A DNA stretch of 64,000 bases, taken from NCBI RefSeq assembly GCF_004323735.1, contig NZ_CP036455.1:5079101-5143100 (forward strand), read 5' to 3'. The DNA is from Streptomonospora litoralis. GTDB taxonomy: Bacteria > Actinomycetota > Actinomycetes > Streptosporangiales > Streptosporangiaceae. Below, piece after piece: positions 3,001 to 26,094 of this stretch. The notes beneath the pieces were generated by a model. The model searched no databases. It was not told the DNA's origin and saw only the letters and a program-made list of their open reading frames with translations. Both the position numbers and the translations under genes were made by a program. Within the stretch, counting starts at the first letter, position 1; each line of letters starts with the position of its first letter.

Positions 3001-3700
3001 CTTCCGGCCTGCCCCCGACCAGGCGTTTGCGCTGCAGCAGTTCCAGGAAGGCGTTGCGGGTCTGCGGTTCCTCGATCCAGGTCTGGGCATCGACGATCCC
3101 GGAGGCGACCATGGTCTGCTCCTGGGCGCTGACCAGGCCCCACCAGCGGCCGTCGGTGACGACCCCGATCGAGGCCGGTCCGCGTCGCAGCAGTTCTTCC
3201 ATGCGGTCGATGGGGCTGGCTGCCCATCCGTCCTCCAGCGGATTGCGCAGCGAATCCACCGGATCGACCACGAGCACCAGAGCGCCGACCGTATCGCCGT
3301 GCACCAGCGCCCCGGTCGGGCGGACGGTGACCGCGTGGTTGGGCGAGGTGGCGGTAGTGGCAAGCGCGGGAGTGTCGGGGGCGGTCGTGTACCCCTCGCC
3401 CCAGCCGATGACATCGCCGAGCACCACTTCGATCCAGGTGTCGCGCTCGGCGCGGTAGACGTCGAGGGCGGCTTCGTGGTCGGACTGCCCGCGGGCGCTG
3501 TCCCAGTGCTCCCATGCCTTTTCGAAGGTGGGTTTGGCATCCTTCAGCTGTGCCAGAGCGTCGGATCCGGGGGCGGGCATGCCGTGGGGCCAGACCCGCT
3601 TCAGTGCGGGTACCGACAGGAACGGCCCGTCGGTGTCCACCAGCTCGAGCCAGGCGCGGTGCAGCTCTCGAGCGTCGGGGGCGCGGTAGCGGCGGCTCAT
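1..3700 (-). CDS. N6-adenine DNA methyltransferase, DrmMI/PglX-like (3' end beyond the window)
   Basis: Open reading frame from the ATG at 3700 to the left edge with no stop, about 1233 codons visible. A SAM-binding motif (ADIACGSGAF) lies near 1803-1845 and the N6-adenine methylase motif GNPPF near 1023-1040, in the order typical of Eco57I/PglX-like enzymes. The start overlaps the stop of the upstream helicase by 4 bp (ATGA), so the two are co-translated. In class 1 DISARM, drmD and drmMI are adjacent and the methylase marks host DNA while the helicase complex attacks phage DNA. The last ~500 bases are clearly more AT-rich than the rest. It could instead belong to another helicase-methylase restriction locus; drmA/B/C would lie left of the window. 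Confidence 0.85.
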   Translation of the reverse strand, partial: MSRRYRAPDARELHRAWLELVDTDGPFLSVPALKRVWPHGMPAPGSDALAQLKDAKPTFEKAWEHWDSARGQSDHEAALDVYRAERDTWIEVVLGDVIGWGEGYTTAPDTPALATTATSPNHAVTVRPTGALVHGDTVGALVLVVDPVDSLRNPLEDGWAASPIDRMEELLRRGPASIGVVTDGRWWGLVSAQEQTMVASGIVDAQTWIEEPQTRNAFLELLQRKRLVGGRPEDRLPALFRESVAAAEEITEALGVQVRRAVELLVQALSEGALATVERGEPDPLPDDRAEVYDAAVTVMMRVVFLLFAEERGLLPENELFSRGYGMAGRLDELDRREHEEGSQALDSTRLTWHRLLATSEALYRGASFEDLRLPSYGGSLFDPKRFPFLTARSEAGALSIAVSDRVMLEVLRSVQMAKLRGEPARRISFRDIDVEQIGYIYEGLLGHTTKETDEVVVGLIGASGEEPEMPLSQLRQLASGHTGSTGLASAILAWVKDNQPAAKPSTKVALDKALSSEPEDAERALRDVTQDAALRERLRPFVGIIRRDLRNRPFVVHPGGVLVAETPSRATAGAHYTPRPLAEKVVRHALEPLVYRPGPHDTSHESAWRLLSSEQILDLKVADIACGSGAFLVAAARYLAGRLVEAWRDERVAAGSAHELYVRALRKVVATCLYGADINSMAVEMCKLSLWLVSLDPKLPFSFVDDKVLHGNSLLGLTDASQLKALHIEPAQADQGRLFEMGTDQRSVEQLDVDGVLRRAAALRRSLASEVSDDDPQRSAATKRRQWREYQELTGQLAELADGVVAVGLRHGGKPGKKLNEAYENLRLAAARAYPAEHEQPNRALLEELLSAGLSPTVETDYERWKPLHWFLAVPDVIERGGFDAVVGNPPFLGGQKLTAALGTNMRDWFVHILANGRRGRADLVGYCLLRSMSLLTEWGTLGLIATNTVAQGDTREVGLAQMVDKGFTITRAIQSQSWPAAAANLEFAAVWGTRRSIAPEALRVADDLAVKRISSLLEPAGRVEGDPARLTENANIAFQGSVVLGKGFIVDFEEAQSWIVADFANSDVLFPYLNGEDINSRPDQSAPRWVIDFNERSEAEARQYSLPYERVLNRVKADRATRTKAARTAPWWLFYRAGRAMRKAISGMDEVLAIALVSKTVMPARVPTGQVFSHKLGVFATDSFSDQAVLSSSLHQIWAVKYGSTMRTDINYSPSDVFLTFPRPKPYDFLD

Positions 3701-6700: not shown

Positions 6701-6912
6701 TCCTCCTCCAGCGACTGCAGGGCCACGACGTGAGTGAGGCCCGGCACGCCCTCGTCGGCGGGGCTGCGGGGCAGGCCCTGTCGGCGGACCTCGGCCACGG
6801 CCCAGGTCGAGCCGCGCACGTTGACCACCTGACCCGGCTCGGGGACTTCCGGCATGGCGGGAACCCCCGTACCGCTGTCATCCACCGCGGTCTCTTGCGA
6901 CGCGACTGCCAT
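3697..6912 (-). CDS. SNF2/DEAD-like helicase, DrmD-like (DISARM class 1)
   Basis: 1071 aa. Walker A is DDVGLGKT (K169), followed by a DEAH box (VDEAHH), the helicase C-terminal motif DSAGEGIDLQ and motif VI QRIGRIDRYGQ, so this is a complete SF2 ATPase with an SNF2-type core and a long helical C-terminal half. The length matches DrmD. It is the first gene of a minus-strand operon and overlaps the DNA methylase by 4 bp. Known of the family: DrmD with DrmMI defines class 1 DISARM anti-phage systems. Inferred role: ATP-driven handling of incoming DNA. No drmA/B/C genes lie upstream, so they would be downstream, outside the window. Confidence 0.8.
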   Translation of the reverse strand: MAVASQETAVDDSGTGVPAMPEVPEPGQVVNVRGSTWAVAEVRRQGLPRSPADEGVPGLTHVVALQSLEEDRLGEELSVVWELEVGHTLAPDQGLPESITADGFDDPNTLAAFVDAVRWGAVTSADTDSYQAPFRSGADIKPYQLEPLRRALGSARTNLLLADDVGLGKTIEAGLVAQELLLRHRARSVVIVCPPSLRLKWRDEMREKFGLEFQLVDSEFMAQLRRTHGLNANPFRLYPRVIVSMAWLPTLRAQRLLREVYADVRDANTARRFAFDLLIVDEAHHVAPSSPSAAGGRRGYAVDSKRTLATRALAEKCEHRLFLSATPHNGYSESFTALMEMIDDRRFSRGALLDERALNEVAVRRLKSQVPDEEFPTRELKAIPFTPGEDEQRHFALLQQVLDAGARTRAQGSGDLVGMLLKKRFLSSPWSFAGTLELYEQSAATGRLPHTAEEDPDGYYQEVMGSEQSDEEEGRDEHPEFTALRQSKKDHPLGAAAPADVRALVQWGRGFEHRPDSRLQALIGFLDAVCRPDNTTWTNERVVVFTEYAQTLDWIAGVLAQRGYRDVLATIQGSTPLEEREDIRARFTRDPAEEPADDRVRVLVATDSAGEGIDLQTHCYRLVNYDVPFNPSRLEQRIGRIDRYGQRHTPQIYHFAPDSDSQTYAADLDFLRRIAEKVGSVAQDLGSVNQVIDQEVQQHFSPARSAGRSRPDAAESGETIITRALAGGRELNRRLTELSRTYEDRKAQMHLTPDNARRVVDTALQLTAQPPLQEIGDERTDAPVFRIPAVGPAWQPALQGLDTRLRPDVWRPVTFDDHAAEGRDDLVHLHLGHALMQKAARTLRSALFSSDSPVHRVTAVVVEDLPQSCVAAASRLVLVGRGGLRLHEEVFLTGIRMRGQALAEAKAEAVLEQALDAQDLAVADPDLRAALARMWSSPDSRLRPRLLAAMERKAQTRQEKVTEALQARRQDDTDRVRDIFAAFRRNLNESHERLEREIRVEDETLFPDDQQHQRRRDLRAMEDRLANLEREEQRETAAIQERYTDIRPYVSAAAVVFALTPDDARKEALES

Positions 6913-7666: not shown

Positions 7667-9445
7667 CTAGAGCCGCTCGGGGGTGGCGATGCCGAGCAGG
7701 TTCATCCCGGTGCGCAGGGTCTGGCCGGTGAGTTCGCAGAGCATGAGTCGGTTGCCGATGATCTCGGCGCTGGGTGCTTTGAGGACCGGGCACTGCTCGT
7801 AGAAGGTGGTGAAGGCCGACGCCAGGGCGAAGAGGTAGGAGCACAGGCGGTGCGGCTCGTAGGTGGCGACGACGTCCCGCAGTGCGGCCCCGAACTCGTC
7901 GAGGAGCAGGCCGAGATCGCGTTCGGCCGCCTCCAACGGCAGGTCGGGGCCGGCCTGCGGGCTTTGGTCGGCTTTGCGCAGGATCGAGCGGATCCGTGCG
8001 TAGGCGTATTGGAGGTAGACGCCGGTGTTGCCGTTGAGCGAGACCATGCGGTCGACGTCGAAGATGTAGTCGCGTGTGCGCGAGGTCGACAGGTCGGCGT
8101 ATTTGACGGCTCCGATGCCGACCTGGCGGGCGCGTTCTTCGAGTTCGTCCTGCGGCATGTGGGGGTTCTTCTCGGTCACGACCGTTCGGGCGCGGTCGAC
8201 GGCTTCCTGTAGCAGCTCCATGAGGCGCACGGTTTCGCCCGAGCGTGTTTTGAAGGGGCGGCCGTCGGGGCCCAGGACCGTTCCGAATGCCAAGTGCCGC
8301 GCGGAGACGGGCTCGGCCAGCCACCCGGCTCGGCGGGCGGTCTCGAAGACCATCTGGAAGTGCAGGGCTTGGCGGGCGTCGACGACGTAGAGCAGTTGGT
8401 GGGCGCCGAGGTCTTTGGTCCGGTAGCGGATGGCGGCCAGATCGGTGGCGGCATAGCCGTAGCCGCCGTCCTTCTTCTGCACGATCAGCGGGGTGAGTTG
8501 GCCGTCCGGGCCGGTGATGTCGTCGAAGAAGACGCACAGTGCCCCGTCGGAGCGCACCGCCACGCCGGTGCGCTCCAGCTCCTCGCTGACCTCGGCGAGG
8601 TAGGGGTTGTAGAAGGACTCGCCGACGGTGTCCTCGTCTGTGAGCAGCACGTCGAGGCGTTCGTAGACGGCTTCGAAGTAGACCTTGGACTCGGCGACGA
8701 TACGGTGCCAGGCTTCCACGGTCTCGGCGTCGCCGGCTTGGAGCTCGACGACGCGGTGGCGGGCGCGGTCGGCGAAATCGGGGTCGGTGTCGAAGCGGGC
8801 GCGGGCATCGCGGTAGAGCCGGTTGAGCCGCGACATGGAGGCGTTGGCCGCGTCGGCGTCGTCGGTGGCCGCGTCGGCGTCGTCGGTGGCCGCGTCGAGT
8901 TGTTCGGGGCGTTCGCGCAGGTCCTGGATCAGCATCCCGAATTGGGTGCCCCAGTCGCCGATGTGGTTGTGGCGAACCACCGTCTCTCCGCCGGCCTGGA
9001 GGATGCGCACGACCGCGTCGCCGATGATGGTGGAGCGCAGGTGCCCCACGTGCATCTCTTTGGCGATGTTGGGCTGGGAGTAGTCGATGACGGTCGTGCC
9101 GGCATCCTCCAGCGGCGCGACGCCCAGTTGCGGGTCGTGGGCGCGTTCGGTTGTGCGTTGGCCGATCGCGGCGTCGCTGAGGGTGATGTTGATGAAGCCG
9201 GGGCCGGAGACTTCGGCTGCGGCGATGGTGGGGCCGTAGTCGAGACGGGTGAGGACCTGTTCGGCGAGGGCGCGCGGGTTGTGGCCCAGTTTCTTGGCGA
9301 GCCCCAGGAGGCCGTTGGCCTGGAAGTCGGCCCGGTCGCTTCGTCGCAGTTGCGGGTCGATGTCGCCGGCCTCGGGGAGGGCGGCGGCGATCGCCTGCTG
9401 GAGGCGGTGGTGCAGCTCGTCTGCGACGGAGAGGACTGTGGCCAT
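7667..9445 (-). CDS. argS: Arginyl-tRNA synthetase (probable second, cluster-linked copy)
   Basis: 592 aa, full length for class I ArgRS. The N-terminal domain (residues ~1-100), the HIGH-type motif HVGHLRST, the degenerate KMSKS-type FKTRSGE and the C-terminal DALR anticodon-binding domain ([15 protein letters not shown]) are all present. It charges tRNA-Arg with arginine in the cytoplasm. An open frame runs upstream, but the ATG at 9445 gives the normal N-terminus and follows a TATAGA box at 9458-9463, suggesting its own promoter and short leader. A short DNA tandem repeat near 8849-8905 encodes an acidic DAATDDAD repeat. Actinobacterial housekeeping argS usually sits beside lysA/hom; here it follows a biosynthetic operon by 146 bp, so a paralogue for self-resistance or aminoacyl-tRNA supply is inferred. 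Confidence 0.9.
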
Positions 9446-9591
9446 GAAGGGGCCGTTTCTATACGAAGGTCGGTTCGGGATGACGGGGGCTCGCTGAGCC
9501 GGTGCCAGTGTAGCGACGCCGCTGCCGCCGGATGTGGCTTCGCGCAGCTCGCCCGGGTGCGGCGGCCAGTGGGCTGGCCTGGGCGCCGTGA

Positions 9592-10458
9592 TTACCCGCC
9601 GCCGGCGGGCAGCGGGTGGCGTGTGAATCGGATGGTGTGCATTCCGGCCGGGACGGCGACGGTGCCGTCGTCGTGCTGGTAGCCGGTGAGGAACGCGGTC
9701 ACGGCGCGGTGGATGTCGACGGCGGCGGTGAGGGCGGGAAACCCTTTGAAGTGTCCCTGCATGAACCATTGGTGGGCGTGACCCGGATCCGGGGCCCGCA
9801 TATGCCCGCGGTGGTGGGTGGTGGTCACGGTCCCCGGGGTCTGGGCGAGGTGGTCGAGCAGCAGGCGCAGGGTGAAGTCCCGGCCTGTTCCGGGGAAGGG
9901 CGCGATGGTCTCCCACAGTCGGGTCACGAAGCGTTGTTCGTCGGAGGCGGGGTCGAAGAAGAGCACGAGGAGCTGGCCGGAGGGCGTGAGTAGGTCCGTG
10001 AGGGCGGTCAGGAACGCCGTGGCGTCTTGGGTCCCCTGCTGGAGGGGTTTGGGCGTGATCTCGGTGCCGGTGTTGGTCTCCAAGCACGCCAGCAGCGGAT
10101 AGTTCAGGCACCAGCAGGCGGCGATGAGGTCGAAGGTGGGCCGTGGTCGCTGAGCGCGGGCCGCGGTGACGAACGATCGGGCGTCGGCGTGGACGGCATG
10201 AACGTTCGGGTGCCGTGCGCGTGTGCTGTCCAGCATGGCCGGGTTGCTGTCCAGGCAGGTCACCTCGTCGGCGTGTGCGGTGATGGTCGGGGTCATGCGT
10301 CCCGTGCCGCAGCCGATCTCCAGGGCTCTTCGGGGCCGTGGGCGAGGCAGGGCGGCCAGTTCCGCGGCGAGGAGTTCGTCGTCGGTGTGCCCGCCGAATT
10401 CGTAGACCGGCAGGAGGAGGTCGTAGAGACCGTGCTGTTGGTAGATGGCCTCAGCCAT
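9592..10458 (-). CDS. SAM-dependent methyltransferase
   Basis: 288 aa class I methyltransferase with motif [12 protein letters not shown] and an acidic motif II ([11 protein letters not shown]), followed by a post-core [12 protein letters not shown] segment. The start overlaps the end of the adenylate-forming ligase by 8 bp, so it is the last gene of the four-gene overlapping operon that begins at 14185. The substrate is unknown; context suggests modification of a small molecule made by the operon rather than of DNA or protein. Confidence 0.8.
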
Positions 10459-11695
10459 GGCTGACGTCCTCCGTGGCGGGTGTGGGGCGCGGGATCTTGT
10501 GGGAGTGCAGGAGACGGCCGGTGCTCTGCACGGTTATGGATCGGGGTGGCAGGTCGAGGCGGTCGGCCGCCCGCGTGCGCAGGGCGGCGATACGTGCGGG
10601 GTCGGTGCGGCCGTGCAGACGGATGCGCACGTGCCCGGGGGTCGGGTGGTGGATGTAGGCGCTTCGGGTGCCCAGGAGAGGCCCGATGTGGTCGAGGACG
10701 TCGCGGGGCCAGGCCCCGTTGATCGGGTGGTCGTCGGCGCGGCCGAGCAGGCGCAGCCGGCCGGAAGCGTCGATGCGGCCGATGTCGGAGGTGACGAGGC
10801 CTCCTGGGTGGGGCGGAGGCGTGGAGCCGGCGAGGGGGATGCCGACGACCGGGGTGTGCAGCGCGATGCGGGGGTGGCCGTCGCGTTCGGCGATGCTGGT
10901 CTCGACGTGGGGCATGGCGGTGCCGACGGTGCCCAGTGATCGTTCGTGGGCTTCGCGGTCGAAGTGGGTGAGGCTTCCGGTCTCGGTGAGTCCGTAGCCT
11001 TCGCGCACGTCGGCGATGTGTTCGCGATAGTGGCGGATCGTGGCTGTGGAGAGCGGGGCGCCGCCGGAGTCGATGAGGACGTTCTCGGCGAGTCGCCGGT
11101 GGGGCGGGGCGGCCAGCAGTACGGGGTTGCCCAAGATGATGCAGCGGTCGTGCTCGGAGGCCAGGCGGTCGGCGTCGGCGAAGGCCGCCTGCGGTGAGGC
11201 GGCCAGGTGCAGGCGAGCGCCGAGGTTGGCGGCCAGGCACAGCCCGGCGATGAAGGCGAAGTTGTAGGCGATGGGCAGGTGGGTGACGATGACGCTCGCT
11301 TCGGTGGCGGTGTAGACGTCGGCGTACCAGGTGGCGAGTTGGTCGAGGTGGTGGGCCGTGAAGGCGTAGGCGCGTTCGCTTCCCGTGCTGCCGGAGCTGT
11401 AGAGGGCGACCCGCCAGTCGGTCTCGCCTGCAGGGGCGCCGATCGTGGTCGGTGCGGCCGACAGCGCCGATGCCGGTGGCGTTCTGCGGCCGACGCCGGC
11501 GGGTTGGAGGATGATCGGTTGGCCTTGGGCCAGTGCCCATGCTGTAGCGCAGGCCAGCGCCCGTTGGTCGGTGCCGGAAAGGGCGATCGGCCGGTGTTGC
11601 GGGGTCGTCGGCAGGGTCGAGCCCGTCAGGCGCCGCCCGAGGCCGCGGGCGGATGTGGTGGGGGTGTCGCCGGTGGAGATCGCGAAGTCATGCAT
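10451..11695 (-). CDS. Adenylate-forming ligase (AMP-binding enzyme), small
   Basis: 414 aa, shorter than most ANL enzymes. P-loop-like A3 motif YSSGSTGSERA, A5 motif EGYGLTETG, A7 SDIGRID, A8 RLRLLGRADD and a C-terminal lysine in HKIPRP (A10) are present, so both the AMP-forming core and the catalytic lysine survive. It probably activates a carboxylic acid as an acyl-adenylate. No carrier-protein gene is seen nearby, so the acceptor may be CoA, an amine or a tRNA-linked intermediate (inference). It overlaps the SDR upstream and the methyltransferase downstream, each by 8 bp. Confidence 0.8.
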   Translation of the reverse strand: MHDFAISTGDTPTTSARGLGRRLTGSTLPTTPQHRPIALSGTDQRALACATAWALAQGQPIILQPAGVGRRTPPASALSAAPTTIGAPAGETDWRVALYSSGSTGSERAYAFTAHHLDQLATWYADVYTATEASVIVTHLPIAYNFAFIAGLCLAANLGARLHLAASPQAAFADADRLASEHDRCIILGNPVLLAAPPHRRLAENVLIDSGGAPLSTATIRHYREHIADVREGYGLTETGSLTHFDREAHERSLGTVGTAMPHVETSIAERDGHPRIALHTPVVGIPLAGSTPPPHPGGLVTSDIGRIDASGRLRLLGRADDHPINGAWPRDVLDHIGPLLGTRSAYIHHPTPGHVRIRLHGRTDPARIAALRTRAADRLDLPPRSITVQSTGRLLHSHKIPRPTPATEDVSHG

Positions 11696-12332
11696 GGTGC
11701 CACATCCGCACAGCCGGGGTCGGAGGGGGCGTGGTGAGGAATGCGGTGGCGCACTCGGCCGCGTCGCGTGCCGCGGGCGCGGGTTCGGGTCGGGGTGTGT
11801 CTCGTGGGGTGCCCATGGGGACTCCGATATCGGGCAGGCGCATCAGCAGCAGGGGCATGGCCTCGTCGTCGGCCACCGCGTGGCGTGCGCCGTCTTCCAG
11901 GGCCGCTTTGCTGGCTGCGTAGACGAGTGTGGCCGTGGTGCTGCCTCCGACGACGTCGCTGGAGATGACGGCGACCGGGAGAGGAGACGCCGCGGCTCGG
12001 TGGGTCGCGGCTGCCGCCAGCAGGCGCAGCTGCGACAGGCAGTTGGTCCGCATGCAGGTGTCGAAGTCGCTGTCGGCCAGGTCGGTGAGGCTGCGTCGAC
12101 TGTCGATGCCGGTGGCGAGCACGACGCCGGTGATCGGCGTGGAGACGGCGCTGCAGGCATCGGCTATTCCGCCGTGGGTGGACAGGTCGGCACTGATGAA
12201 GGTGTCGGAGGGGCGCAGCCCCGCGGGGCGGCTGCGCGACACGGCGATGATGCGGGGGAACGCGGGTTCCAGGTGCGCCAGCAGTATTTGGCCCAGCGTT
12301 CCGCTGGCGCCGGAGACGAGGAGTGCCGTCAC
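11688..12332 (-). CDS. Short-chain dehydrogenase/reductase
   Basis: 214 aa. The NAD(P)-binding motif GASGTLG is at the N-terminus, and AVISSDVVGG followed by VYAASKAAL supplies the catalytic Ser and the YxxxK pair. The GTG at 12332 overlaps the stop of the preceding gene by 4 bp (GTGA). A longer frame extends upstream but would bury 130 residues in the neighbour, so the GTG is preferred. It likely reduces or oxidises a carbonyl or alcohol in the product of the four-gene operon. Confidence 0.8.
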   Translation of the reverse strand: MTALLVSGASGTLGQILLAHLEPAFPRIIAVSRSRPAGLRPSDTFISADLSTHGGIADACSAVSTPITGVVLATGIDSRRSLTDLADSDFDTCMRTNCLSQLRLLAAAATHRAAASPLPVAVISSDVVGGSTTATLVYAASKAALEDGARHAVADDEAMPLLLMRLPDIGVPMGTPRDTPRPEPAPAARDAAECATAFLTTPPPTPAVRMWHHA

Positions 12333-14185
12333 TGTTCCCCCTCCAGCACCAGGCGGCCGCTGTGGGCGTTGAAGTGCAGGGTGAGAAGCCGTATCGGCAG
12401 GTCCAGCAGGTCGATGACGGCTCTGACCTTGCCTTGTTGGACCTCGTAATAGTCTTCCAAGACGTTCAGATGCGTGAGGGTTCCGGCGTCGAGGACGGAT
12501 TCGACGAGTCGGCACACGCCGGGATCCGGCGCTTCCGGCGCGGTGACGTCGGTGAACAGCATGTAGAAGCGCTCGAGCCGGCCGATCTTCTCGTCGTGGT
12601 CGCCGGCGGCGTCGAGGATCCGGCAGGCGTGTTCGTGGACGCCGTCGGCGAGGTCGAAGCGCTCGCGGAAGTAGGTGTCGAACCGGGCGGGAGCACTCCG
12701 GTAGACCAGCAGCGCCGTTTCGAAGAAGACGCACCCGGTGGCGTTTTCGCCCGGCACGTCCTCGAACAGCTCGCAGTGGTTGCCGTTGTCCAGGGTCAGG
12801 AACATGTTGTCGCCGCGTCGTCGGCAGCGTTCGGCGAGCCCGAGGGTGTGCAGACGTTGCCAGAGGCCGCAGGCGATGCTGCGGACGATGGGGCTCGACT
12901 CGGCGATGAGGTGCATGGCGGCCTCAGGGAAGTGGCGCTGCAGGAAGGTGCGGTAGTCGGCGGGGCGCAGCTTCACCAGCACGTGGTCGTCGTCGACCAT
13001 CGGGGTGAGTGTCGGCGCGGGCAGACGGTTCCGGTTCAGGGCTTCCACTGCGGCCGCGCCGAGTTGGGCGCCGAGCTCCTGGTCGATGTCGAGATCGCGG
13101 TCGAGGTGGACGTGGCCGCATTCCATGCTCGCGATCTGCGAGCCGCTCCAGGCTGCGAACAGGCGCTGCGCCTGCTCGCGCATGTGCGTCGCCGAGACTG
13201 CGGTCCTGGCCGGCGGGACCAAGGGCGGAGCGACCCATTCTGGCTGGGTCGCTTCGGTGACGGTCAGCCGCCGGTCCGGGTGGAGCCGCACCTTTACGCC
13301 GTGGGCAGTGACGTGTTCCGTGCTGGCGGCGTCGGTGTGGACCCTCGGCAGATGCTGGAGGCACCAGTCGAGGGGCGGCTGGTCGGTGTGGATGAGGTGC
13401 CCACCGGGGTGCGACCACGCGAGGCTGCTCGTTCGGGTGTCAGACGTGGTCTCGACCAGGGCCACGTCGATCCAGGCGCGCACCGGAGTGGCGACGGCAT
13501 AGGCCCACACGGCCAGCGCCGCCTCGGCCGGGGTCAGATACTGCAGCAGTGCGCTGCAGAGGTAGGCGACTTCTTTCCTCGTCCTGCGTCGCGGTGAGGA
13601 CACGCAGAGCAGGAAGTCGCGCTGGGCCGGCAGCCACACCGACGTGTGCGCGGTGAGTTCGTGCTCGGCCATGCGCGGTTCGCGAAGCTGCGGTGCGGGA
13701 CGGCGAGCGCCCCGCTGACTCAGCCGTGAACGCACCACGATGAGCAGTTCAGACAGGACCTTGAGGTCCTCGGGCATGCGGTCGGAGTTGCGCAGGCGAC
13801 GGACCGCCTGATCGGCGTCGGTATCGTCCAGGCCGAGCGAGCCGATGTCCACGATCCGGGAGAAGTGCACGAGTTCCTGCTGCAGCTCGCTGGCCGCAGC
13901 GACCTCCAGCAGCGGTGCCCGCCCCGTCTCCAGGAACGCGGCCAGCACATCGACCGCGTCGTCGGTACCGGTCGACGGTGCCCGCAGGGTTTGCCAGCAG
14001 TCGCGGGGCACCGCGTCGCCATGCAGGAACAGCAGAGCCGACACCCGGGCCAGGAGCCGCCGGAAGGCGGCATCGACCTCGGCGTCCGGCAGCTCGCGGG
14101 TCGTGCGGTGTTCCAGGGCGGAGTAGGCCGCCAGCAGTTCCCGCTGGAGCCCGCTCCCCGCCCGATACGTAGAACTCTTGATCAT
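12329..14185 (-). CDS. Protein of unknown function, first gene of the biosynthetic operon
   Basis: 618 aa and soluble (no signal peptide or membrane segment). The ATG at 14185 is preceded by GAGGGGCGAGG, a good ribosome site. I recognise no family. Visible features: a helical, leucine-rich N-terminal ~130 residues, a His-rich stretch (HPGGHLIHTDQP), a segment CGHVHLDRDLDID, and a C-terminal half with FLTLDNGNHCELFED and ERFYMLFTDV. Signatures of NIS synthetases and lantibiotic dehydratases were looked for and not found. Its position at the head of an operon with an SDR, a ligase and a methyltransferase suggests the scaffold-forming or condensing step, but this is inference. Confidence 0.7.
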   Translation of the reverse strand: MIKSSTYRAGSGLQRELLAAYSALEHRTTRELPDAEVDAAFRRLLARVSALLFLHGDAVPRDCWQTLRAPSTGTDDAVDVLAAFLETGRAPLLEVAAASELQQELVHFSRIVDIGSLGLDDTDADQAVRRLRNSDRMPEDLKVLSELLIVVRSRLSQRGARRPAPQLREPRMAEHELTAHTSVWLPAQRDFLLCVSSPRRRTRKEVAYLCSALLQYLTPAEAALAVWAYAVATPVRAWIDVALVETTSDTRTSSLAWSHPGGHLIHTDQPPLDWCLQHLPRVHTDAASTEHVTAHGVKVRLHPDRRLTVTEATQPEWVAPPLVPPARTAVSATHMREQAQRLFAAWSGSQIASMECGHVHLDRDLDIDQELGAQLGAAAVEALNRNRLPAPTLTPMVDDDHVLVKLRPADYRTFLQRHFPEAAMHLIAESSPIVRSIACGLWQRLHTLGLAERCRRRGDNMFLTLDNGNHCELFEDVPGENATGCVFFETALLVYRSAPARFDTYFRERFDLADGVHEHACRILDAAGDHDEKIGRLERFYMLFTDVTAPEAPDPGVCRLVESVLDAGTLTHLNVLEDYYEVQQGKVRAVIDLLDLPIRLLTLHFNAHSGRLVLEGEQ

Positions 14186-18348: not shown

Positions 18349-18981
18349 ATGAGCGTGACCGTACACGGGACCCCTGGATGGAGTCTGGAGCACTCCGGAG
18401 GCCAGAGCTACGGACCTAACGCGCGCCGGGGCGCCTTCCACGAGAAACGCGTCGCCCAGGCCCTGGAGCAATGGCTGCGTGGGCGCTCCGACCACTTCCA
18501 CCTATTCCATGACCTAACCGGGTTCGACAAGGCGGGCGGAATCGGCACGAACTCGCCCGACCTGGGCACCACCAACATCGACCATGTCGTGCTGACCGGC
18601 GACAACTGGCTAGTCGTGGACTCCAAGGGGTGCGGCGCGGGAACCCTCGGACTTGACAACCACGGCAAGGGCGTGCTGATCACGGAGGGCGGCACCACTG
18701 TCGCGCAGAAGTGGCTCGACCACAGGCGCTCCTACGCGAGCGCGGGCATCCTCTTCCGTCTTACTGACGGGGTCAAGGGTCAGGCCACCTGGATCGTACC
18801 GGACGCAACGATGCTGCATCCCAGCATCCAGAAGGCGACCTTGACTAAGACGGGCGGTGTAGTGCTGCCGATGCGCGCACTGACCGACGGGTTCTTCGAT
18901 CAGCACTTCCCTGCCCCGCAGGCAGGCGCCGACGCCGAACACGTCTCCTGGCTCACGGAGCACCTGAGCACTCAGTCATAA
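18349..18981 (+). CDS. NERD-like nuclease-related protein
   Basis: 210 aa. The N-terminal half has the nuclease-related (NERD/Mrr-like) pattern: E32 in AFHEKRVAQAL, D78 in NIDHVVLTG and D91-S-K93 in LVVDSKGCG, spaced like a PD-(D/E)xK core. The C-terminal half is a less conserved alpha/beta region. No membrane segment. It lies between an IS-truncated gene and the TcmP gene in a defence-rich stretch, so a DNA-cleaving role is plausible but inferred. Confidence 0.65.
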   Translation: MSVTVHGTPGWSLEHSGGQSYGPNARRGAFHEKRVAQALEQWLRGRSDHFHLFHDLTGFDKAGGIGTNSPDLGTTNIDHVVLTGDNWLVVDSKGCGAGTLGLDNHGKGVLITEGGTTVAQKWLDHRRSYASAGILFRLTDGVKGQATWIVPDATMLHPSIQKATLTKTGGVVLPMRALTDGFFDQHFPAPQAGADAEHVSWLTEHLSTQS

Positions 18982-19370
18982 CCCAAATGCCAGCGGATCT
19001 TGGGTGAATGTCGCGATCATCTGGGATTCCCGGAACGCAAAAAACATGGAGCACGGTGGCCAGGCTGGCGACCACGAGCAGGACTGCCCGCTCGAAGCAA
19101 TGATCAGCGACGCGCTGCAGGAGCTCGATCGAACCAGTCGCCTCGTCTACCGATAGAGATCTGCGCCTTTCGGTACGATGCAATGCACGACGTGCCCCCT
19201 CCTGGCGGCGCGATCCTGGTGAACAGGAGTGAGCGTGAGAACTGGATCGAGCAACGCCAACACTTGCTACAGGACACCGTGGAGCAAGGGGTCGGAGACG
19301 GCCGCAGTGAGGCGCCATGTTCTGTGCCGCCGTCTACCCCAAGACGTGGGACGTCTAGAGGACGCGGCCG
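18982..19370 (+). other. Spacer with short frames only
   Basis: About 390 bases. A 36-codon frame at 19046-19156 (MEHGGQAGDH...) and a longer low-quality frame crossing into the next gene are visible, but neither has a convincing ribosome site or family match. The TcmP ribosome site AGAGGA lies at the end of this stretch. Confidence 0.4.
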
Positions 19371-20531
19371 ATGTCTAGGGGAACAGACGCCGGGCTGCTC
19401 GACAGCCCCAAACCACAGTCGGTCTACAAGCACGGACTCCTCGAGCAGTACATCATAAGATTCGCAACGATGACGGCTAGCCGGCTGACTCCGAAGCGAT
19501 CGGTTCTCTTTGATGGATTCGCTGGCCGAGGGCGCTTCGACTCGGGTGAACCGGGGTCGGCCGAGCACATGATGCTCGCCGCGCAGAAGGCCAAGGCGAG
19601 AACACAAATCGACCTCCTTCTGATGGAACAAGCCCAAGGGGACTACGAGACTCTCGACAAGGTTGCCGACGAATATCGCGCCCGCGGCATCCACATCGAC
19701 AGTCACCACGGAGACTGCGGGGGCCACCTCGACGAGGCGCTGCGGCTGGCTGCCGGGGCCAGCCTGTTCATGTTCCTCGATCCCTGTGGAGCCGTGCTCC
19801 CTATGGACTCGCTCAAACATGTCCTCCGCAAGCGTGGCACGTGGCCGGCGACTGAGATGCTATTGAACTTCAGCGCCGACCTGATCCGCCGGGCCGGAGG
19901 ACAGCTGAAGAAGGGCCAACTGAACCTCGGCGGTGTCGACAAAGCAGATGCCGTGTGCGGCGGCAAGTGGTGGCGCGATGTGGCGCTGCGGGCCCATGAG
20001 ACCTCTGGCGGACAAGTCTGGGAGCCGGCCGCAGAGACGGTCGCGCTCGAGTATGCGCGGCGTCTGGTGGCGGACACCGAGTACGGATTCGTCGTCGCGC
20101 CGGTGCGACGGCAGGTCCACCACCAGCCGATCTACTACCTGATCTTCCTTACCAAGAGCCCGCATGGATTCTGGATGTTCGGCGACGCCGCGGCCAAGGC
20201 GCGCGAGAAGTGGCTCCGTTTCCTCGGACCGGATCCTGACGAAGCAGCGACCATGCTCTGGGACACTGTGGCCGAGCAGGTCGAGCGCGAGCACACTAAG
20301 GCGATCGCGCACATCACCGACAACCTACGCTGCCTAACGGCGGATGGGCAGCAAAGAGAGGTCGTCAGACACGTTAAGGAGATCTACGGCGATCTCTATG
20401 GTGAGGCCAAAGAGACCGCGTTCACAGCGGCTCTTCGCGCACTAACGAAAGAGCCAGCTGAGATCGAGTATGTGACTCGAGGCAGCAAGCCCCACCAGCG
20501 CGTCATCCGCAACGTCACAGTCACGGACTAA
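19371..20531 (+). CDS. tcmP: Three-Cys-motif partner protein TcmP
   Basis: 386 aa. LFDGFAGRGRF (46-56) and FLDPCG (136-141) are the hallmark blocks of TcmP; the first resembles a Rossmann SAM-binding motif, suggesting a methyltransferase-like fold. Family knowledge: TcmP is encoded beside a protein with a three-Cys motif of the phage Gp37/Gp68 type. Exactly such a gene lies convergently, the two stop codons overlapping by 4 bp. AGAGGA 8 bases before the ATG is a good ribosome site. The joint function is unknown. Confidence 0.85.
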   Translation: MSRGTDAGLLDSPKPQSVYKHGLLEQYIIRFATMTASRLTPKRSVLFDGFAGRGRFDSGEPGSAEHMMLAAQKAKARTQIDLLLMEQAQGDYETLDKVADEYRARGIHIDSHHGDCGGHLDEALRLAAGASLFMFLDPCGAVLPMDSLKHVLRKRGTWPATEMLLNFSADLIRRAGGQLKKGQLNLGGVDKADAVCGGKWWRDVALRAHETSGGQVWEPAAETVALEYARRLVADTEYGFVVAPVRRQVHHQPIYYLIFLTKSPHGFWMFGDAAAKAREKWLRFLGPDPDEAATMLWDTVAEQVEREHTKAIAHITDNLRCLTADGQQREVVRHVKEIYGDLYGEAKETAFTAALRALTKEPAEIEYVTRGSKPHQRVIRNVTVTD

Positions 20532-21280
20532 GCCGACGCGACAACAAGCTCCGGCATGTCGTCCCAGGTACGTCCGTCCAGTTCCCGACCATTCGCCTTC
20601 GGCGTCCGACCACCCCACTGCTTGAAGAAGAACGCCACGTCGGCGTCGACGCACTGATCACGAATGTCCTCCACCCAGGCCGGATCCATGGCCCGTGCCC
20701 GTGGCCCCGACTCGCCACCCGCGATCACCCAGTCGATACCCTCCAGATTCAACACAGGCAGGGCCGTGATCAGTGGCTCGCACGACAAGAACCGCGTTGT
20801 GGCCGGGACATCGCGAAGACGGTCGACCCGGTCCACGACATCGAACGACTCCACCGACACACCCATCCAAAGATTTTCGGGCCACTCGAGTTTTTCGGCG
20901 AGCCTCGCCATACGACGAGCCCGCTTCGTCAGCACTTGGTAGGTGTGCTGCGGAGTCTCGCGAATCACGTCGAAAATGTCGCGGATGAAGTCGAGCGGAA
21001 CCTTGGCGTGGAACAGATCGCTCATCGAGTTCACGAACACGACCTTGGGCGTACGCCACCGCAGCGGCTGATCGAGCGCGCGAGGATGCGTCGTAACCCC
21101 GAATCCGGGCCCCGACGTACGGGGGTCACCATCGTTCTGGTACTTTTCCGCACCCATAGCCTGAAGGCGCTTCGCGAGTGCGAGCGCATAACAATTGTCG
21201 CAGCCAGCCGCGACCCTGTCACATCCGGTGACGGGGTTCCACGTTACCTCGGTCCATTCGATCCCGCTGTTCGTGGCCAC
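20528..21280 (-). CDS. DUF5131 (phage Gp37/Gp68-like) three-Cys-motif protein
   Basis: 250 aa. The motif C20-x6-C27-x2-C30-Y (TGCDRVAAGCDNCYA) is followed by FVNSMSDLFH, the YQVLTKRARRM block and GGESGPRARAM, the ordered signature blocks of this family. The GTG at 21280 was chosen because AGGAG lies 8 bases upstream; a longer frame adds non-conserved residues. The Cys spacing recalls, but is not, the CxxxCxxC cluster of radical SAM enzymes. It converges with tcmP. Confidence 0.85.
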   Translation of the reverse strand: MATNSGIEWTEVTWNPVTGCDRVAAGCDNCYALALAKRLQAMGAEKYQNDGDPRTSGPGFGVTTHPRALDQPLRWRTPKVVFVNSMSDLFHAKVPLDFIRDIFDVIRETPQHTYQVLTKRARRMARLAEKLEWPENLWMGVSVESFDVVDRVDRLRDVPATTRFLSCEPLITALPVLNLEGIDWVIAGGESGPRARAMDPAWVEDIRDQCVDADVAFFFKQWGGRTPKANGRELDGRTWDDMPELVVASA

Positions 21281-21415
21281 AACGTCACTCCTCTCGTCTC
21301 GGTGAGCGTATCGGCAACCAGACGAGGCCGTGAAGCGAACCGCCCCCGTCCCATCGATCACATGTGATCGTGCTCCCTGGCGGTCGTAATGAGCGTGCCA
21401 GCTGGCACCGACACT

Positions 21416-21990
21416 CTAGGTGCCGCGGGGTGGGAGGTTGTTGACATCGAGGCAGGGTGACATGAGGAGAGCAGGCCCCGACGGCGATGGTGAGAAGCGC
21501 CAACCACTCATCAAGCCGCTGGACAGGACCTGCTCTCGTGTGATCGAAAGACCTTCACGGCAGTTGAGCCGCCGGGGTGGGTGTTGGGAGAAGCGGCCGT
21601 CCCCCAACAGCTCCCAACCGCCGCGAGGATCTCTCAACGGAACCCACTCGCGCATGAGCAGCTCGTAGGCACCCCTCAGGGCGAAGCTCGGCCAGGCGTG
21701 GATCACACGCGACCACAGCGTCGGGTCGGCCACCGCGATGTTAGCCGCGAGCCTGGCGACGCTCCCGAGGATCAGCAGCGTCCACGGCAGCAGACCGACG
21801 GCCTGCCGGGCATCGGCCAGCAGCGCCATCGAGGACGCGACGATCATGCCATCTACGGATAGCGGGAATAGGGCCGCGCGCCAGGCGGGTTTCCCGTGGC
21901 GCTGGACCAGCTCGTACATGTGGCTGTAGCTGATCACCGCGGCGATCACGGACAGCATGAACACGGCGAGAATGGTTGTCCAGCGGGAAG
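21416..21990 (-). pseudogene. Decayed DUF2637 gene (copy 1)
   Basis: The membrane part (SYSHMYELVQRHGKPAWRAAL... to YELLMRE) is close to the two intact copies at 23.9 and 49.5 kb. Against them, the start codon is destroyed (TATGAA has become TACGGA), six bases are lost just after it, and the C-terminal ~110 residues including the helix-turn-helix tail are replaced by unrelated frame. It is therefore a relic, although a 182-codon frame remains open from an internal ATG. Confidence 0.75.
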
Positions 21991-23919: not shown

Positions 23920-24678
23920 TCACACCACTGCCTGGTCGAATCGTCCTTGCTGGCCCCATTGCTTGATCAATCGGCCCCAGCGATCCTTGTGGTCGAAGTG
24001 GGCGGCTATCTCACGGCCGGTGGGGAGGGAACCGTCTTCCCGACGGTTGTCCAGGGCCCAGTGCCAGGCCTCGATCTGAATCCGCGATACCGACTCCGAC
24101 GGGACGGCCGTTTCCGTGGCGACTGCTGATGCGGCCTCGTTGGTTGCCTCGACCACGTGCAGCCTCGGACGGCCGTCCCCAGTCGCCCCGGGCGTATCCA
24201 CCCCCTCGGACGGAGCGGGCACCTCCGGATCGGCTCGGGCGGCCTCGGCTGTGTCCACGGTCTGCTCATCGTGTGCGTGCGCCGTGCGTGCGCCGCGAGC
24301 GTCGATGCGGAACTCGCGCATGAGCAACTCGTAGGCACCCATCAGAGCGAAGCTCGGCCACGCGTGGATCACCCGCGACCACAGCGTCGGATCGGCCACC
24401 GCGATGTTAGCCGCGAGGCTGGCGACGCTCCCGAGGATGAGCAGCGTCCAGGGAAGCAGGCCGCCGCGCCGGCCGTGGCGGGCGTCGGCCAGCAAAGCCA
24501 TCGACGACGCCACAATCATGCCGTCGACAGAGAGAGGAAACAGGGCCGCGCGCCAAGCGGGTTCGCCGTGGCGCTGGGCCAGCTCGTACATGTGGCTGTA
24601 GCTGACGACCGCGGCGATCACGGCCAACATCAATACGGCAAGGATGGTTGTCCAGCGGGACCAGAGGGTAGAATTCAT
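23920..24678 (-). CDS. DUF2637 membrane protein with C-terminal HTH-like tail (copy 2)
   Basis: 252 aa. Four membrane helices fill residues ~10-125 (the DUF2637 block), then a variable Ala/Glu-rich linker, then ~50 residues with a winged-helix look: LPTGREIAAHFDHKDRWGRLIKQWGQQG. From memory, DUF2637 proteins are common on actinobacterial plasmids and integrative conjugative elements; their function is not established. Its 5' half and upstream 108 bases are identical to copy 3; the linkers differ. Confidence 0.85.
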   Translation of the reverse strand: MNSTLWSRWTTILAVLMLAVIAAVVSYSHMYELAQRHGEPAWRAALFPLSVDGMIVASSMALLADARHGRRGGLLPWTLLILGSVASLAANIAVADPTLWSRVIHAWPSFALMGAYELLMREFRIDARGARTAHAHDEQTVDTAEAARADPEVPAPSEGVDTPGATGDGRPRLHVVEATNEAASAVATETAVPSESVSRIQIEAWHWALDNRREDGSLPTGREIAAHFDHKDRWGRLIKQWGQQGRFDQAVV

Positions 24679-24793
24679 AGCAGGTCACCGCCCCGCCAGA
24701 TTCAGCTCGGTGGTCAGGCGGACCCGAGCGGCCGAGAAAGCTGAGCGGGCCGAGTGGCTATAGGAATTTGGTTCGACTCCCCCCTCGGACACA
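24347..24793 (-). repeat. Left 447-bp perfect direct repeat
   Basis: By eye identical base for base to 49880-50326. It covers the first ~110 codons of DUF2637 copy 2, its leader and a tRNA-3'-end-like core. The similarity continues further left with scattered mismatches. Both copies have the same orientation and bracket the metal/redox island. Confidence 0.9.
24772..24793 (+). other. tRNA-3'-end-like core, candidate att site
   Basis: TTCGACT (a T-loop) followed by CCCCCCTCGGACACA looks like the last part of a tRNA: T-stem strand, a 7-base acceptor strand CTCGGAC and a discriminator A. No matching 5' half (GTCCGAG) is present, so it is not a functional tRNA. The same core ends the right repeat, and identity between the repeats stops right after it, as expected at a site-specific integration core. 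Confidence 0.45.
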
Positions 24794-24954: not shown

Positions 24955-25890
24955 GACCGGACGCCCGGTCTCGCGGAGCGATCGCCGCGGTGGGCCTTGA
25001 CCTTCGAGCCGACTTGAAGGCCTACATTCGGGGCCATGGCTGCACGCGACACCAACGGATCCGCACCCTCCTTCCGACCGGGCACGGCGCTGGTCACCGG
25101 CGCGTCCTCGGGTATCGGACGTGAGACGGCCCGGCTCCTGGCCGAGCGGGATTTCTGCGTCTTCGGCACCAGCCGCAGCGACCGCCCCGACTTCGCCGGC
25201 GTGCGGATGCTGCGGCTCGACGTGACAAGCGATGACTCCGTCGCCGCGTGCGTGGACAAGGTCCTCGACCAGGTCGGAACGATCGACGTGCTGGTCAACA
25301 ACGCCGGAACGCTGCACCGCGGGATCGCCGAGGAGACCGCGCTCGCCGAGGCCGCCGCGGTCTTCGACACCAACCTCTTCGGCGCCGCGCGGGTCGCCAA
25401 CACCATCCTGCCGCACATGCGCGAACGCGGCCGGGGCCGCATCGTCAACGTCGGATCCCTAGCCGCCTGGATCGGCGAGCCGGGCGAGGGCTACTACGCC
25501 GCCTCCAAGGCCGCCCTCGCCCGCTACACCGAGGCGCTGCGCCACGAGGTCCGCCATCTCGGCGTCGACGTCAGCCTGGTGGAGCCGGGCGCGTTCACCA
25601 CGGGCGTGGTCGACGCCGCCACCCGCTCCTCAGAGGAGATCGCCGACTACGACGATGTCCGCGCCAACGCCTTCGACACCCTCGAACGAGGGCTGCGCAA
25701 GGGCGGGAATCCCCGCAAGGCGGCCGGAGTCGTCGTCAAGGCGGCCACCGCCCGCAGGCCGAAGCCGCGCTACGCGGCCGGCAGCGAGGCGCTGTGGCTG
25801 CCGCCGCTGCGGCTGCTGCTGCCCCAATGGGTCCTGGAACGGCTGGTCAGGAAGGGCTTCGGTCTTCCGCCTGCGAAAGCGCGCAGCTGA
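24955..25890 (+). repeat. Duplicated SDR segment (partner at 62867-63808)
   Basis: The shared block opens with GACCGGACGCCCGGTC at both loci, has a small divergent gap, then runs through the leader and the whole SDR gene with scattered substitutions. The two copies are in direct orientation about 37.9 kb apart. Confidence 0.75.
25036..25890 (+). CDS. SDR family oxidoreductase (copy 1)
   Basis: 284 aa classical SDR: TGASSGIG (21-28), NNAG, catalytic Ser in NVGSLAAW, Y154-x3-K158 (YYAASK). A ~90-residue C-terminal extension ends in a Leu/Pro-rich stretch (LPPLRLLLPQWVLERL) that may touch the membrane. It probably oxidises or reduces a lipid or aldehyde; the substrate is unknown. A close duplicate sits at 62954; the similarity begins about 80 bases upstream of both starts. 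Confidence 0.9.
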   Translation: MAARDTNGSAPSFRPGTALVTGASSGIGRETARLLAERDFCVFGTSRSDRPDFAGVRMLRLDVTSDDSVAACVDKVLDQVGTIDVLVNNAGTLHRGIAEETALAEAAAVFDTNLFGAARVANTILPHMRERGRGRIVNVGSLAAWIGEPGEGYYAASKAALARYTEALRHEVRHLGVDVSLVEPGAFTTGVVDAATRSSEEIADYDDVRANAFDTLERGLRKGGNPRKAAGVVVKAATARRPKPRYAAGSEALWLPPLRLLLPQWVLERLVRKGFGLPPAKARS

Positions 25891-26094
25891 AGCGCTCCCC
25901 GCTGTGCACCGCCCGTACTTCCCGCGCGAGTGCACCGCGCCCACTCGAACAACACTCCACAGTGGATTCACCGTTTTATAGATTCACAGATTCCTGTACC
26001 GTCGGAGCGTGTTGACCCTTGTTGACCCTCGCCCTCGCCAGTCCTGCCCCGGACATGAACCGGCACGCCTGCGGGTCCAGTCGCGCATGCTGCG

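What the first reader, a model, noticed from the sequence alone, without database searches (positions are those of the whole stretch)
18349..21280. NERD-like nuclease with a convergent TcmP/DUF5131 three-Cys pair: candidate defence module
TcmP (DGFAGRG, FLDPCG) and DUF5131 (C-x6-C-x2-CY) are known genomic partners of unknown function. Here their stops overlap tail to tail and a PD-(D/E)xK-like nuclease sits directly upstream, between an IS, DISARM genes and integrative-element relics. The trio could be an undescribed nucleic-acid-modifying or anti-phage system.
Basis: partly seen in the sequence, partly recalled or inferred. Interest (0 to 1): 0.6.

Follow-up and report, generated by a model that had tools for sequence, protein, structure and literature searches.

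The report
Methyltransferase-like and radical-SAM gene pair
The nuclease gene is only a chance neighbour, but the other two genes form a widespread mobile pair, already listed as a candidate phage-defence system, that looks like a methyltransferase working with a radical-SAM enzyme.

Summary
All three genes are present as described, but they are not a trio. No homologue of the NERD gene (18349-18981) was found near TcmP/DUF5131 in 29 other family genomes, 73 genome loci or 83 viral loci (overlapping sets; one marginal hit, E=0.009).

The TcmP/DUF5131 pair is real and recurrent: adjacent in 28 of 30 family genomes, convergent in 17, and convergent in 64 of 73 genome loci, 58 of these within 61 nt. 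PADLOC-DB already lists it as candidates PDC-M30/M41. Predicted folds: TcmP resembles the rRNA methyltransferase RlmJ (Z 16-17), DUF5131 the radical-SAM enzyme spore photoproduct lyase (Z 14). In 8 of 9 Gordonia phages opened, but in neither of 2 mycobacteriophages, the pair lies between immunity repressor and integrase; phage CarolAnn has proven defence genes beside its repressor. Best reading: a nucleic-acid-modifying defence module expressed in lysogeny. Target, chemistry and defence are untested.

The parts
19371..20531 (+). TcmP: RlmJ-like methyltransferase fold (about residues 15-290) with a C-terminal helical/winged-helix-like region (about 300-386; inferred from predicted secondary structure only)
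   Evidence: TIGR04474 E=2.7e-38; AlphaFold2 mean pLDDT 91.2; VIA-align rows DUF519/RlmJ Z 16.3-17.1, next family Z 13.2; hhalign to E. coli RlmJ over the KH...D-x-x-A-G-x-G-R-Y segment: E=7.5e-5, probability 62 with A1; E=7.2e-4, probability 26 with A4
20528..21280 (-). DUF5131: radical-SAM-type partial barrel, Cys motif C-x6-C-x2-C-Y; likely GTG start at 21280 (ORF open to 21361)
   Evidence: PF07505 E=5.5e-102; TIGR04471 radical SAM mobile pair protein A E=7.8e-21, below its cut-off; AlphaFold2 mean pLDDT 91.5; spore photoproduct lyase Z 13.8-14.1
20528..20531 (.). 4-nt tail-to-tail overlap of the two stop codons
   Evidence: same -4 spacing in 11 of 64 convergent genome loci
19155..21416 (.). 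Extent of the homologous stretch shared with the closest relative found (Nocardiopsis metallicus, 90.7% DNA identity); excludes NERD
   Evidence: organism name from locus L081, whose contig has the same length as that of G107
18349..18981 (+). NERD-domain (PD-(D/E)xK-like) nuclease gene: a neighbour, not part of the module
   Evidence: PF08378 E=8e-7; 16 of 341 family genomes have a homologue, of which 4 also have TcmP, linked only here

Best explanation
TcmP and DUF5131 form a two-gene mobile cassette that landed next to an unrelated NERD gene in a mosaic region. TcmP is a SAM-dependent methyltransferase-fold protein of the RlmJ type, with a C-terminal part that may bind nucleic acid. DUF5131 is a small radical-SAM enzyme closest in fold to the DNA-repair enzyme spore photoproduct lyase. 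Most likely the two act on the same nucleic acid: TcmP, the fast-evolving member, gives target choice and perhaps methyl transfer, and DUF5131, the strongly conserved member, does the radical chemistry. The modification is used in conflicts between phages and other mobile elements, above all as a prophage-, plasmid- or island-borne defence expressed in the resident state. Shown here: pairing, convergent layout, co-inheritance, purifying selection in one sequence pair, predicted folds, and position in the immunity cassettes of some temperate phages. Inferred: SAM binding and catalysis, the shared nucleic-acid substrate, TcmP as specificity factor, expression in lysogeny, and defence as the benefit.
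For: Pairing: DUF5131 next to TcmP in 28 of 30 family genomes (own included), 17 convergent and 11 co-directional with DUF5131 first; 64 of 73 genome loci convergent; gap <=61 nt in 58 of 64 against 48 of 140 other convergent neighbours called in the same loci, overlap in 27 of 64 against 22 of 140. Co-inheritance: over 56 loci TcmP and DUF5131 identity matrices correlate at r=0.75, reached by 0 of 1000 permutations (shared taxonomy of the hosts is not corrected for); mean pairwise identity 42% for TcmP, 74% for DUF5131; window against the closest relative dN/dS about 0.16 and 0.06. Folds. Motifs: K20 invariant in 57 of 57 chosen TcmP rows and KH in 55 of 57; Cys triad and GGESG invariant in 62 of 62 chosen DUF5131 rows. 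Mobility: 25 plasmid records with TcmP, 9 phage records (6 phages by name) with TcmP by tblastn, 161 phage records with DUF5131; 40 of the 80 best viral DUF5131 loci have TcmP. Immunity cassette: in 8 of 9 Gordonia phages opened the convergent pair lies between immunity repressor and integrase; in 7 of these 8 TcmP directly follows the repressor on the same strand, overlapping it by 4 nt or 3 nt after it; all 8 genes are TcmP by HMM (E<=4e-39 with one model, <=3e-17 with the other). CarolAnn genes 43/44, coexpressed with that phage's repressor in lysogeny, are experimentally proven defence genes (PMC6426606, passages read). PADLOC candidates PDC-M30/M41, found by 'guilt-by-embedding' according to PMC10855318, which predicts PDC-M30 in 32 of 100 P. 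aeruginosa strains, 68.8% of these classed resistant (passages). A TcmP gene is listed next to the defence gene hna in a table of NolR-affected S. meliloti genes (PMC12445080, passages), and S. meliloti phiLM21-like prophages carry TcmP (PMC12429752, passage).
Against: No experiment on this pair was found. One Gordonia phage (Bakery) and both mycobacteriophages opened (Typha, prophiT36-2a) have DUF5131 without TcmP among recombination or replication genes, in Bakery and prophiT36-2a beside a DNA methyltransferase gene, which fits a benefit to the phage itself. The 8 positive Gordonia phages were the best hits and several are close relatives, so they are few independent events. Known or candidate defence genes were not visibly richer beside the pair than at the edge of the same loci (79 model families in 141 near proteins, 70 in 117 far proteins, many overlapping models of one protein). 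TcmP's motif IV is mostly DPCG, never the DPP[YF] of adenine-N6 enzymes (0 of 57 and 0 of 24 rows), so methyl transfer is unproven. Foldseek support for DUF5131 is modest: 1 chain at E<=0.001 (5.2e-4), TM-score at most 0.56, and aldolase-type barrels from rank 6. The P. aeruginosa figure is a correlation. Convergent genes are not one operon.
Confidence: 0.55

Rival explanations
1. Self-marking by mobile elements: the pair modifies the DNA of the phage, plasmid or island that carries it so that host restriction or other defences do not cut it (anti-restriction).
For: Carried by phages, plasmids and viral contigs; two phage DUF5131 genes lie directly, or one small gene, downstream of a DNA methyltransferase gene inside DNA-metabolism gene sets; both proteins have the folds of base-modifying enzymes.
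Against: In 8 of 9 Gordonia phages opened the pair is in the repressor-integrase cassette rather than the lytic operon; PADLOC has it from embedding in defence loci (PMC10855318 on the PDC class).
Confidence: 0.2
2. RNA-level module: TcmP methylates rRNA or tRNA like its fold relative RlmJ, and DUF5131 acts on RNA as RlmN or TYW1-type radical-SAM enzymes do, changing translation during phage infection or restoring damaged RNA.
For: TcmP best fold RlmJ, then Trm1; radical-SAM RNA enzymes RlmN and TYW1 also in DUF5131's list at Z about 10-11.
Against: DUF5131's best match is a DNA enzyme (spore photoproduct lyase); fold lists do not settle the substrate; one record's 'RNA methyltransferase' label on DUF5131 is unverified annotation.
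Confidence: 0.17
3. Undescribed three-gene defence system in which NERD is the nuclease effector.
For: Adjacent and co-oriented NERD and TcmP here; NERD retains a D...DSK motif.
Against: No homologue of this NERD in 29, 73 and 83 (overlapping) sets of loci, one marginal hit of E=0.009 apart; the stretch shared with the closest relative ends before NERD; 4 genomes hold both genes and only the window links them; no match to this NERD on plasmids or viral contigs at the limits used.
Confidence: 0.03

Closest known systems
PADLOC-DB candidates PDC-M30 and PDC-M41 (phage defence candidates)
   Same: Component B models match the window's DUF5131 at E=1.1e-112 and 1.5e-108; one component A model matches 22 of 24 TcmP proteins of alignment A1 at E<=0.001, and the best A match is 8.2e-49.
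   Different: The window's TcmP matches the A models only weakly (22.8 bits, E=1.2e-5), so it belongs to a diverged branch that PADLOC may not call.
TcmP of NCBIfam (TIGR04474) and Pfam DUF5131 (PF07505; 'phage Gp37/Gp68 family protein' in the plasmid record)
   Same: Both family models pass their curated cut-offs.
   Different: No function is given; the fold-level assignments here go beyond the family names.
Spore photoproduct lyase (radical-SAM DNA repair enzyme)
   Same: Best fold match of DUF5131, Z 13.8-14.1, 194-196 residues at 2.8-2.9 A.
   Different: 11% identity; Cys motif C-x6-C-x2-C instead of C-x3-C-x2-C (latter recalled); no sequence-level hit in the PDB.
RlmJ, 23S rRNA m6A2030 methyltransferase
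   Same: Best fold match of TcmP, Z 16.3-17.1 against 13.2 for the next family; shared KH and D-x-x-A-G-x-G-R-Y segment.
   Different: Motif IV mostly DPCG, not DPP[YF]; about 100 extra C-terminal residues; no sequence hit in the PDB.
CarolAnn gp43/gp44 and Sbash gp30/gp31 prophage defence pairs
   Same: Two genes of temperate actinophages; [quoted passage not shown]
   Different: Other proteins (a predicted membrane protein and one with a weak DUF4747 match, per that paper). The likeness is in position and, by inference from gene order only, in expression.
Radical SAM mobile pair protein A (TIGR04471)
   Same: DUF5131 matches it at E=7.8e-21.
   Different: 74.6 bits against a cut-off of 355: a relative, not a member.

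Membership tests
Three-gene NERD-TcmP-DUF5131 system | Recurrent linkage of the three genes across genomes | tested here: not met
   No linked homologue at tblastn E<=1 in 29 loci nor at HMM E<1e-3 in 73 and 83 loci; shared stretch excludes NERD
TcmP (TIGR04474) | Score over NCBI's curated cut-off | tested here: met
   132.4 bits against 53
DUF5131 (PF07505) | Score over Pfam's gathering cut-off | tested here: met
   340.9 bits against 28.9
PADLOC PDC-M30/M41 | B component (DUF5131) present beside the A component | tested here: met
   E=1.1e-112 / 1.5e-108; genes overlap by 4 nt
PADLOC PDC-M30/M41 | A component model match at PADLOC's own threshold | tested here: inconclusive
   22.8 bits, E=1.2e-5 for the window's TcmP; the system's threshold was not available
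Radical SAM superfamily (DUF5131) | Partial TIM-barrel radical-SAM fold | tested here: met
   49 of the 50 rows listed are radical-SAM proteins (some by recall), Z up to 14.1; the other is a designed protein at rank 48
Radical SAM superfamily (DUF5131) | Three-Cys cluster motif near the N-terminus | tested here: met
   C20, C27, C30 invariant in 62 of 62 chosen rows, as the variant C-x6-C-x2-C; the canonical C-x3-C-x2-C is recalled and not met
Radical SAM superfamily (DUF5131) | Binds a [4Fe-4S] cluster and cleaves SAM | not testable with these tools
   needs biochemistry
RlmJ (m6A rRNA methyltransferase) | RlmJ fold | tested here: met
   Z 16.3-17.1
RlmJ (m6A rRNA methyltransferase) | Adenine-N6 motif IV DPP[YF] (motif recalled) | tested here: not met
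   0 of 57 rows of A4 (DPCG in 46) and 0 of 24 rows of A1 (DPCG in 8)
NERD (PF08378) | Score over gathering cut-off and PD-(D/E)xK-like residues | tested here: met
   30 bits against 22.1; D78 and D-S-K in the window, D-A-K in 7 of 8 aligned homologues
Prophage genes of the repressor-integrase cassette | Located between immunity repressor and integrase | tested here: met
   8 of 9 Gordonia phages opened, 0 of 2 mycobacteriophages; not the window itself, which has no such cassette in the stretch studied
Prophage defence genes | Confers resistance to a heterotypic phage | not testable with these tools
   needs plating assays

The most novel reading that the evidence does not exclude
TcmP-DUF5131 is a defence system without any nuclease: a fast-evolving RlmJ-like protein chooses the target and, with or without methylating it, lets a strongly conserved radical-SAM enzyme make or undo a base modification of a kind not yet described, which blocks invading phages. 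It is carried, and expressed in lysogeny, by temperate phages, and is convergently arranged because the two products must be kept in balance.
Probability: 0.25. Interest if true: 0.8.

Novelty: new member of a known kind. Interest (0 to 1): 0.45.

Why it matters
The pair is widespread in actinobacteria, phages and plasmids, carries an automatic annotation without function, and has almost no literature: in the held open-access library 'three-Cys-motif' occurs in 3 papers, once in each (passages of two seen, the third seen only in the listing), and 'DUF5131' in none. The fold assignments and the phage immunity-cassette position turn an annotation into a testable claim: a radical-SAM plus methyltransferase-fold module in phage conflict. 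The Gordonia phages that carry it grow on Gordonia terrae, as their records state.

Tried and rejected
NERD as third partner: rejected. A recurrent alternative third gene: none stands out among the two nearest called genes on each side of 36 loci (141 of 162 called neighbours scanned; left out were 5 of 41 loci (L089, L138, L145, L146, L151), genes over 4.5 kb and one second TcmP; the far set was 117 of 126). The commonest Pfam families among them are phage integrase (5 of 141), NUDIX and GntR (3 each), GmrSD_N (2); only 25 of 92 families were listed, so single occurrences are not all visible. My gene callers are simple scripts, so some called neighbours, and some of the 140 control gene pairs, are spurious; the pair's own spacing there comes from HMM-identified reading frames, not from the same caller. 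DNA methyltransferase as a general substitute partner of TcmP-less viral DUF5131: 2 C5-methylase and 1 D12 matches among 129 neighbour proteins of 40 loci (129 of 150 picked ORFs scanned, 25 of 40 families listed). Conserved leader or ncRNA: the DNA upstream of both genes is not conserved across all 11 sequences aligned; beyond the closest relative only pairs of close loci resemble each other; Rfam finds nothing at 16-26 kb; no tRNA in the window. Sequence-level relatives in the PDB: none for either profile at E<=10. A congener comparison to find the empty site gave only scattered matches, so the boundary rests on the single relative. Absences from the VIA-align lists were not used.

Details on the counts: the sets of loci overlap (at least 9 of the 73 genome loci lie on contigs of the same length as contigs of the 29 family genomes; L156 and L157 are one viral contig). 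9 of 73 genome loci are shorter than 10 kb and 22 of 83 viral loci shorter than 8 kb, so distant linkage could be missed there; 40 of the 83 viral loci have no TcmP. Of the 8 genome loci without DUF5131 three end just after TcmP (L124, L139, L152), four have a TcmP fragment (L137, L144, L147, L153) and one, the archaeon L149, has a full TcmP. In one search locus L050 shows a 772-nt gap that is an artefact of a bad ORF start; the same contig gives 16 nt as L114. L145 is counted as co-directional because its second TcmP scored best; it also has a convergent one. Alignments for the models: 56 of 70 candidate TcmP and 61 of 140 candidate DUF5131 rows were chosen by hand.
Full report
What is there. 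Three genes stand at the stated place: a 210-residue NERD-domain protein (18349-18981, +), a 386-residue TcmP (19371-20531, +) and DUF5131 (20528-21280, -; ORF open to 21361). Family models confirm all three. The stops of TcmP and DUF5131 overlap by four bases. The third-position GC of the pair (0.74-0.76) is lower than that of most flanking genes (0.8-0.9), as expected of acquired DNA.

Is NERD part of it? No. Of 341 genomes of the family, 30 have TcmP (own included; 17 of 68 genera). I fetched 11-19.5 kb around the 29 others: tblastn with the window's NERD finds nothing at E<=1 in any of them. The Pfam NERD model finds NERD genes in all 30 genomes, but besides the window only one within 5 kb of TcmP (G311, 2.0 kb) and one more within 10 kb (G282, 8.8 kb), neither detectably related to the window's NERD by tblastn. 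An HMM of the window's own NERD subfamily finds no match at E<1e-3 in 73 genome loci or 83 viral loci; the only hit up to E=0.01 is L127 at E=0.009. These sets overlap in part. Homologues of this NERD exist in 16 of 341 genomes; four genomes hold both NERD and TcmP, and only the window links them; in G107 they are about 670 kb apart, in G196 and G267 on different contigs. Finally the closest relative found, Nocardiopsis metallicus, shares 2.27 kb at 90.7% identity with the window, from 19155 to 21416, which covers the pair and excludes NERD. On the other side the shared block ends at the 3' end of a DUF2637 ORF (21416-21964) whose upstream part repeats the DUF2637 gene at 23920-24678 at 86-92% over 340 bp. 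The simplest history, an inference, is a TcmP-DUF5131 cassette inserted between NERD and a duplicated DUF2637 gene.

Is the pair real? Yes. DUF5131 adjoins TcmP in 28 of 30 family genomes (own included; one lacks it in 19.5 kb, one has a truncated TcmP and no DUF5131 in 11.4 kb): 17 convergent, 11 co-directional with DUF5131 first. A scan of 84,980 species genomes gave 73 loci encoding relatives of TcmP, 72-91% identical even in Nocardiopsis, Mycolicibacterium, Mycobacterium, Arthrobacter, Tsukamurella and Microbacterium, which points to transfer between families. In 64 of 73 the two genes are convergent; 8 show no DUF5131, seven of these because the contig ends or TcmP is a fragment; 1 was scored co-directional. 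The tail-to-tail spacing is tight: 58 of 64 within 61 nt and 27 of 64 overlapping, against 48 and 22 of 140 other convergent neighbours called in the same loci; six pairs are 248-2768 nt apart. Over 56 loci the two identity matrices correlate (r=0.75; 0 of 1000 permutations as high; host taxonomy not corrected for), TcmP is much less conserved (mean 42% against 74%), and the window genes compared with the closest relative show dN/dS near 0.16 and 0.06. Loci with two TcmP genes and one DUF5131 occur in Tsukamurella, two Microbacterium and S. meliloti pSymA, as if one DUF5131 can serve several TcmPs; that is inference.

What the proteins look like. AlphaFold2 models are confident (pLDDT 91.2 and 91.5). 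DUF5131 matches spore photoproduct lyase best (Z 13.8-14.1, 194-196 residues, 2.8-2.9 A), followed by other radical-SAM enzymes at Z 10-12, including SuiB, viperins and RlmN. Foldseek alone is weaker: spore photoproduct lyase is first, but only one chain reaches E<=0.001 and aldolase-type barrels appear from rank 6. Its three cysteines (C20, C27, C30) are invariant in 62 of 62 chosen sequences and lie just after the first strand, where the cluster motif of radical-SAM enzymes sits (position recalled). TcmP matches RlmJ and its DUF519 relative at Z 16.3-17.1, clear of the next family at 13.2; hhalign independently aligns the KH...D-x-x-A-G-x-G-R-Y segment to E. coli RlmJ (E=7.5e-5 and 7.2e-4, probabilities 62 and 26 with two alignments), while another rRNA methyltransferase, RsmJ, gives E=0.22 over 7 columns. 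K20 is invariant in 57 of 57 rows. Motif IV is DPCG in 46 of 57 rows of A4 and 8 of 24 of A1, and never DPP[YF], so the methylated group, if any, need not be adenine N6. The C-terminal region of TcmP has a helix-helix-strand-strand pattern that suggests a winged helix; this was not tested by a fold search of that part alone. Neither profile finds any PDB sequence at E<=10. A shared fold does not show a function.

Where it lives. TcmP is on 25 plasmid records and, by tblastn, in 9 phage records (6 phages by name); DUF5131 is in 161 phage records. Of the 80 best viral-contig DUF5131 loci, 40 have TcmP beside it. I opened eleven phages. In eight Gordonia phages (Fairfaxidum, Jablanski, Easley, BaxterFox, Bosnia, Angelique, PantheRoc and WelcomeAyanna) a TcmP gene (HMM E<=4e-39 with one model, <=3e-17 with the other) converges on DUF5131 with a 4-nt (six phages) or 11-nt (two) overlap, between the immunity repressor and the integrase. 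In BaxterFox the DUF5131 reading frame is not annotated but present. In seven, TcmP directly follows the repressor on the same strand; in Jablanski two genes intervene and the repressor is on the other strand. These eight were chosen as best hits and several are close relatives. The CarolAnn study shows that genes 43 and 44 of another Gordonia phage, coexpressed with its repressor in lysogeny, defend against other phages (PMC6426606; passages read); those proteins are of other kinds. By contrast, in Gordonia phage Bakery and in the mycobacteriophages Typha and prophiT36-2a DUF5131 sits without any TcmP in the 7.7-7.9 kb read, among recombination or replication genes, in Bakery directly and in prophiT36-2a one small gene downstream of a DNA methyltransferase gene. 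So a phage-serving role is not excluded.

What is known. NCBIfam names TcmP for its partner; PADLOC-DB v2 carries both as PDC-M30 and PDC-M41. One P. aeruginosa survey predicts PDC-M30 in 32 of 100 strains, 68.8% of them in the resistant class (PMC10855318, passages read). In S. meliloti a TcmP gene is listed next to the defence gene hna among NolR-affected genes; whether they are one transcription unit is marked there by shading that the text copy does not show (PMC12445080, passages read). S. meliloti phiLM21-like prophages carry TcmP (PMC12429752, one passage). The searches for TcmP, three-Cys-motif, DUF5131, Gp37 Gp68, radical SAM mobile pair, and radical SAM with anti-phage terms found no functional study of the pair in the held open-access library (for only the listing was seen, 40 of 394 and 4 of 4 papers); subscription papers and most preprints are not covered.

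Verdict. I put the defence reading at about 0.55, self-marking at 0.2 and RNA-level action at 0.17, the last partly overlapping the first.

Noticed in passing
window 21416-21964, 23920-24678, and about 49453-50326: DUF2637 gene partly duplicated (21646-21988 matches 24312-24660 at 86-92%); the stretch 24700-24793 recurs at 100% at window 50233-50326 next to a further 252-aa ORF.
   Followed up: partly
window 7667-12734: Arginyl-tRNA synthetase with an apparent N-terminal extension of about 230 residues, with methyltransferase, AMP-binding and short-chain dehydrogenase genes beside it on the same strand: looks like an aminoacyl-tRNA-linked biosynthetic cluster.
   Followed up: no
window 3697-6912 and G000:C1:5072969-5073280: DrmD of DISARM in the window, and an MZB/DUF1998 match about 6 kb left of it that could be DrmB.
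   Followed up: partly
window 24955-25907 and 62865-63824: The short-chain dehydrogenase region is repeated at 89% near the right end of the window.
   Followed up: no
L085, L145, L146, L262: Loci with two TcmP genes for one DUF5131 (Tsukamurella, two Microbacterium, S. meliloti pSymA).
   Followed up: partly
L260 and L087: EcoRI-family adenine methyltransferase, DUF262 and TcmP in one run of genes, converging on DUF5131, on Rhodococcus ruber plasmid pYYL1.1; in Microbacterium L087 two genes of similar size and position precede TcmP, with related upstream DNA.
   Followed up: partly
L257, L258, L259: Phage DUF5131 without TcmP in recombination/replication gene sets; in two of the three phages near a DNA methyltransferase gene.
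   Followed up: partly
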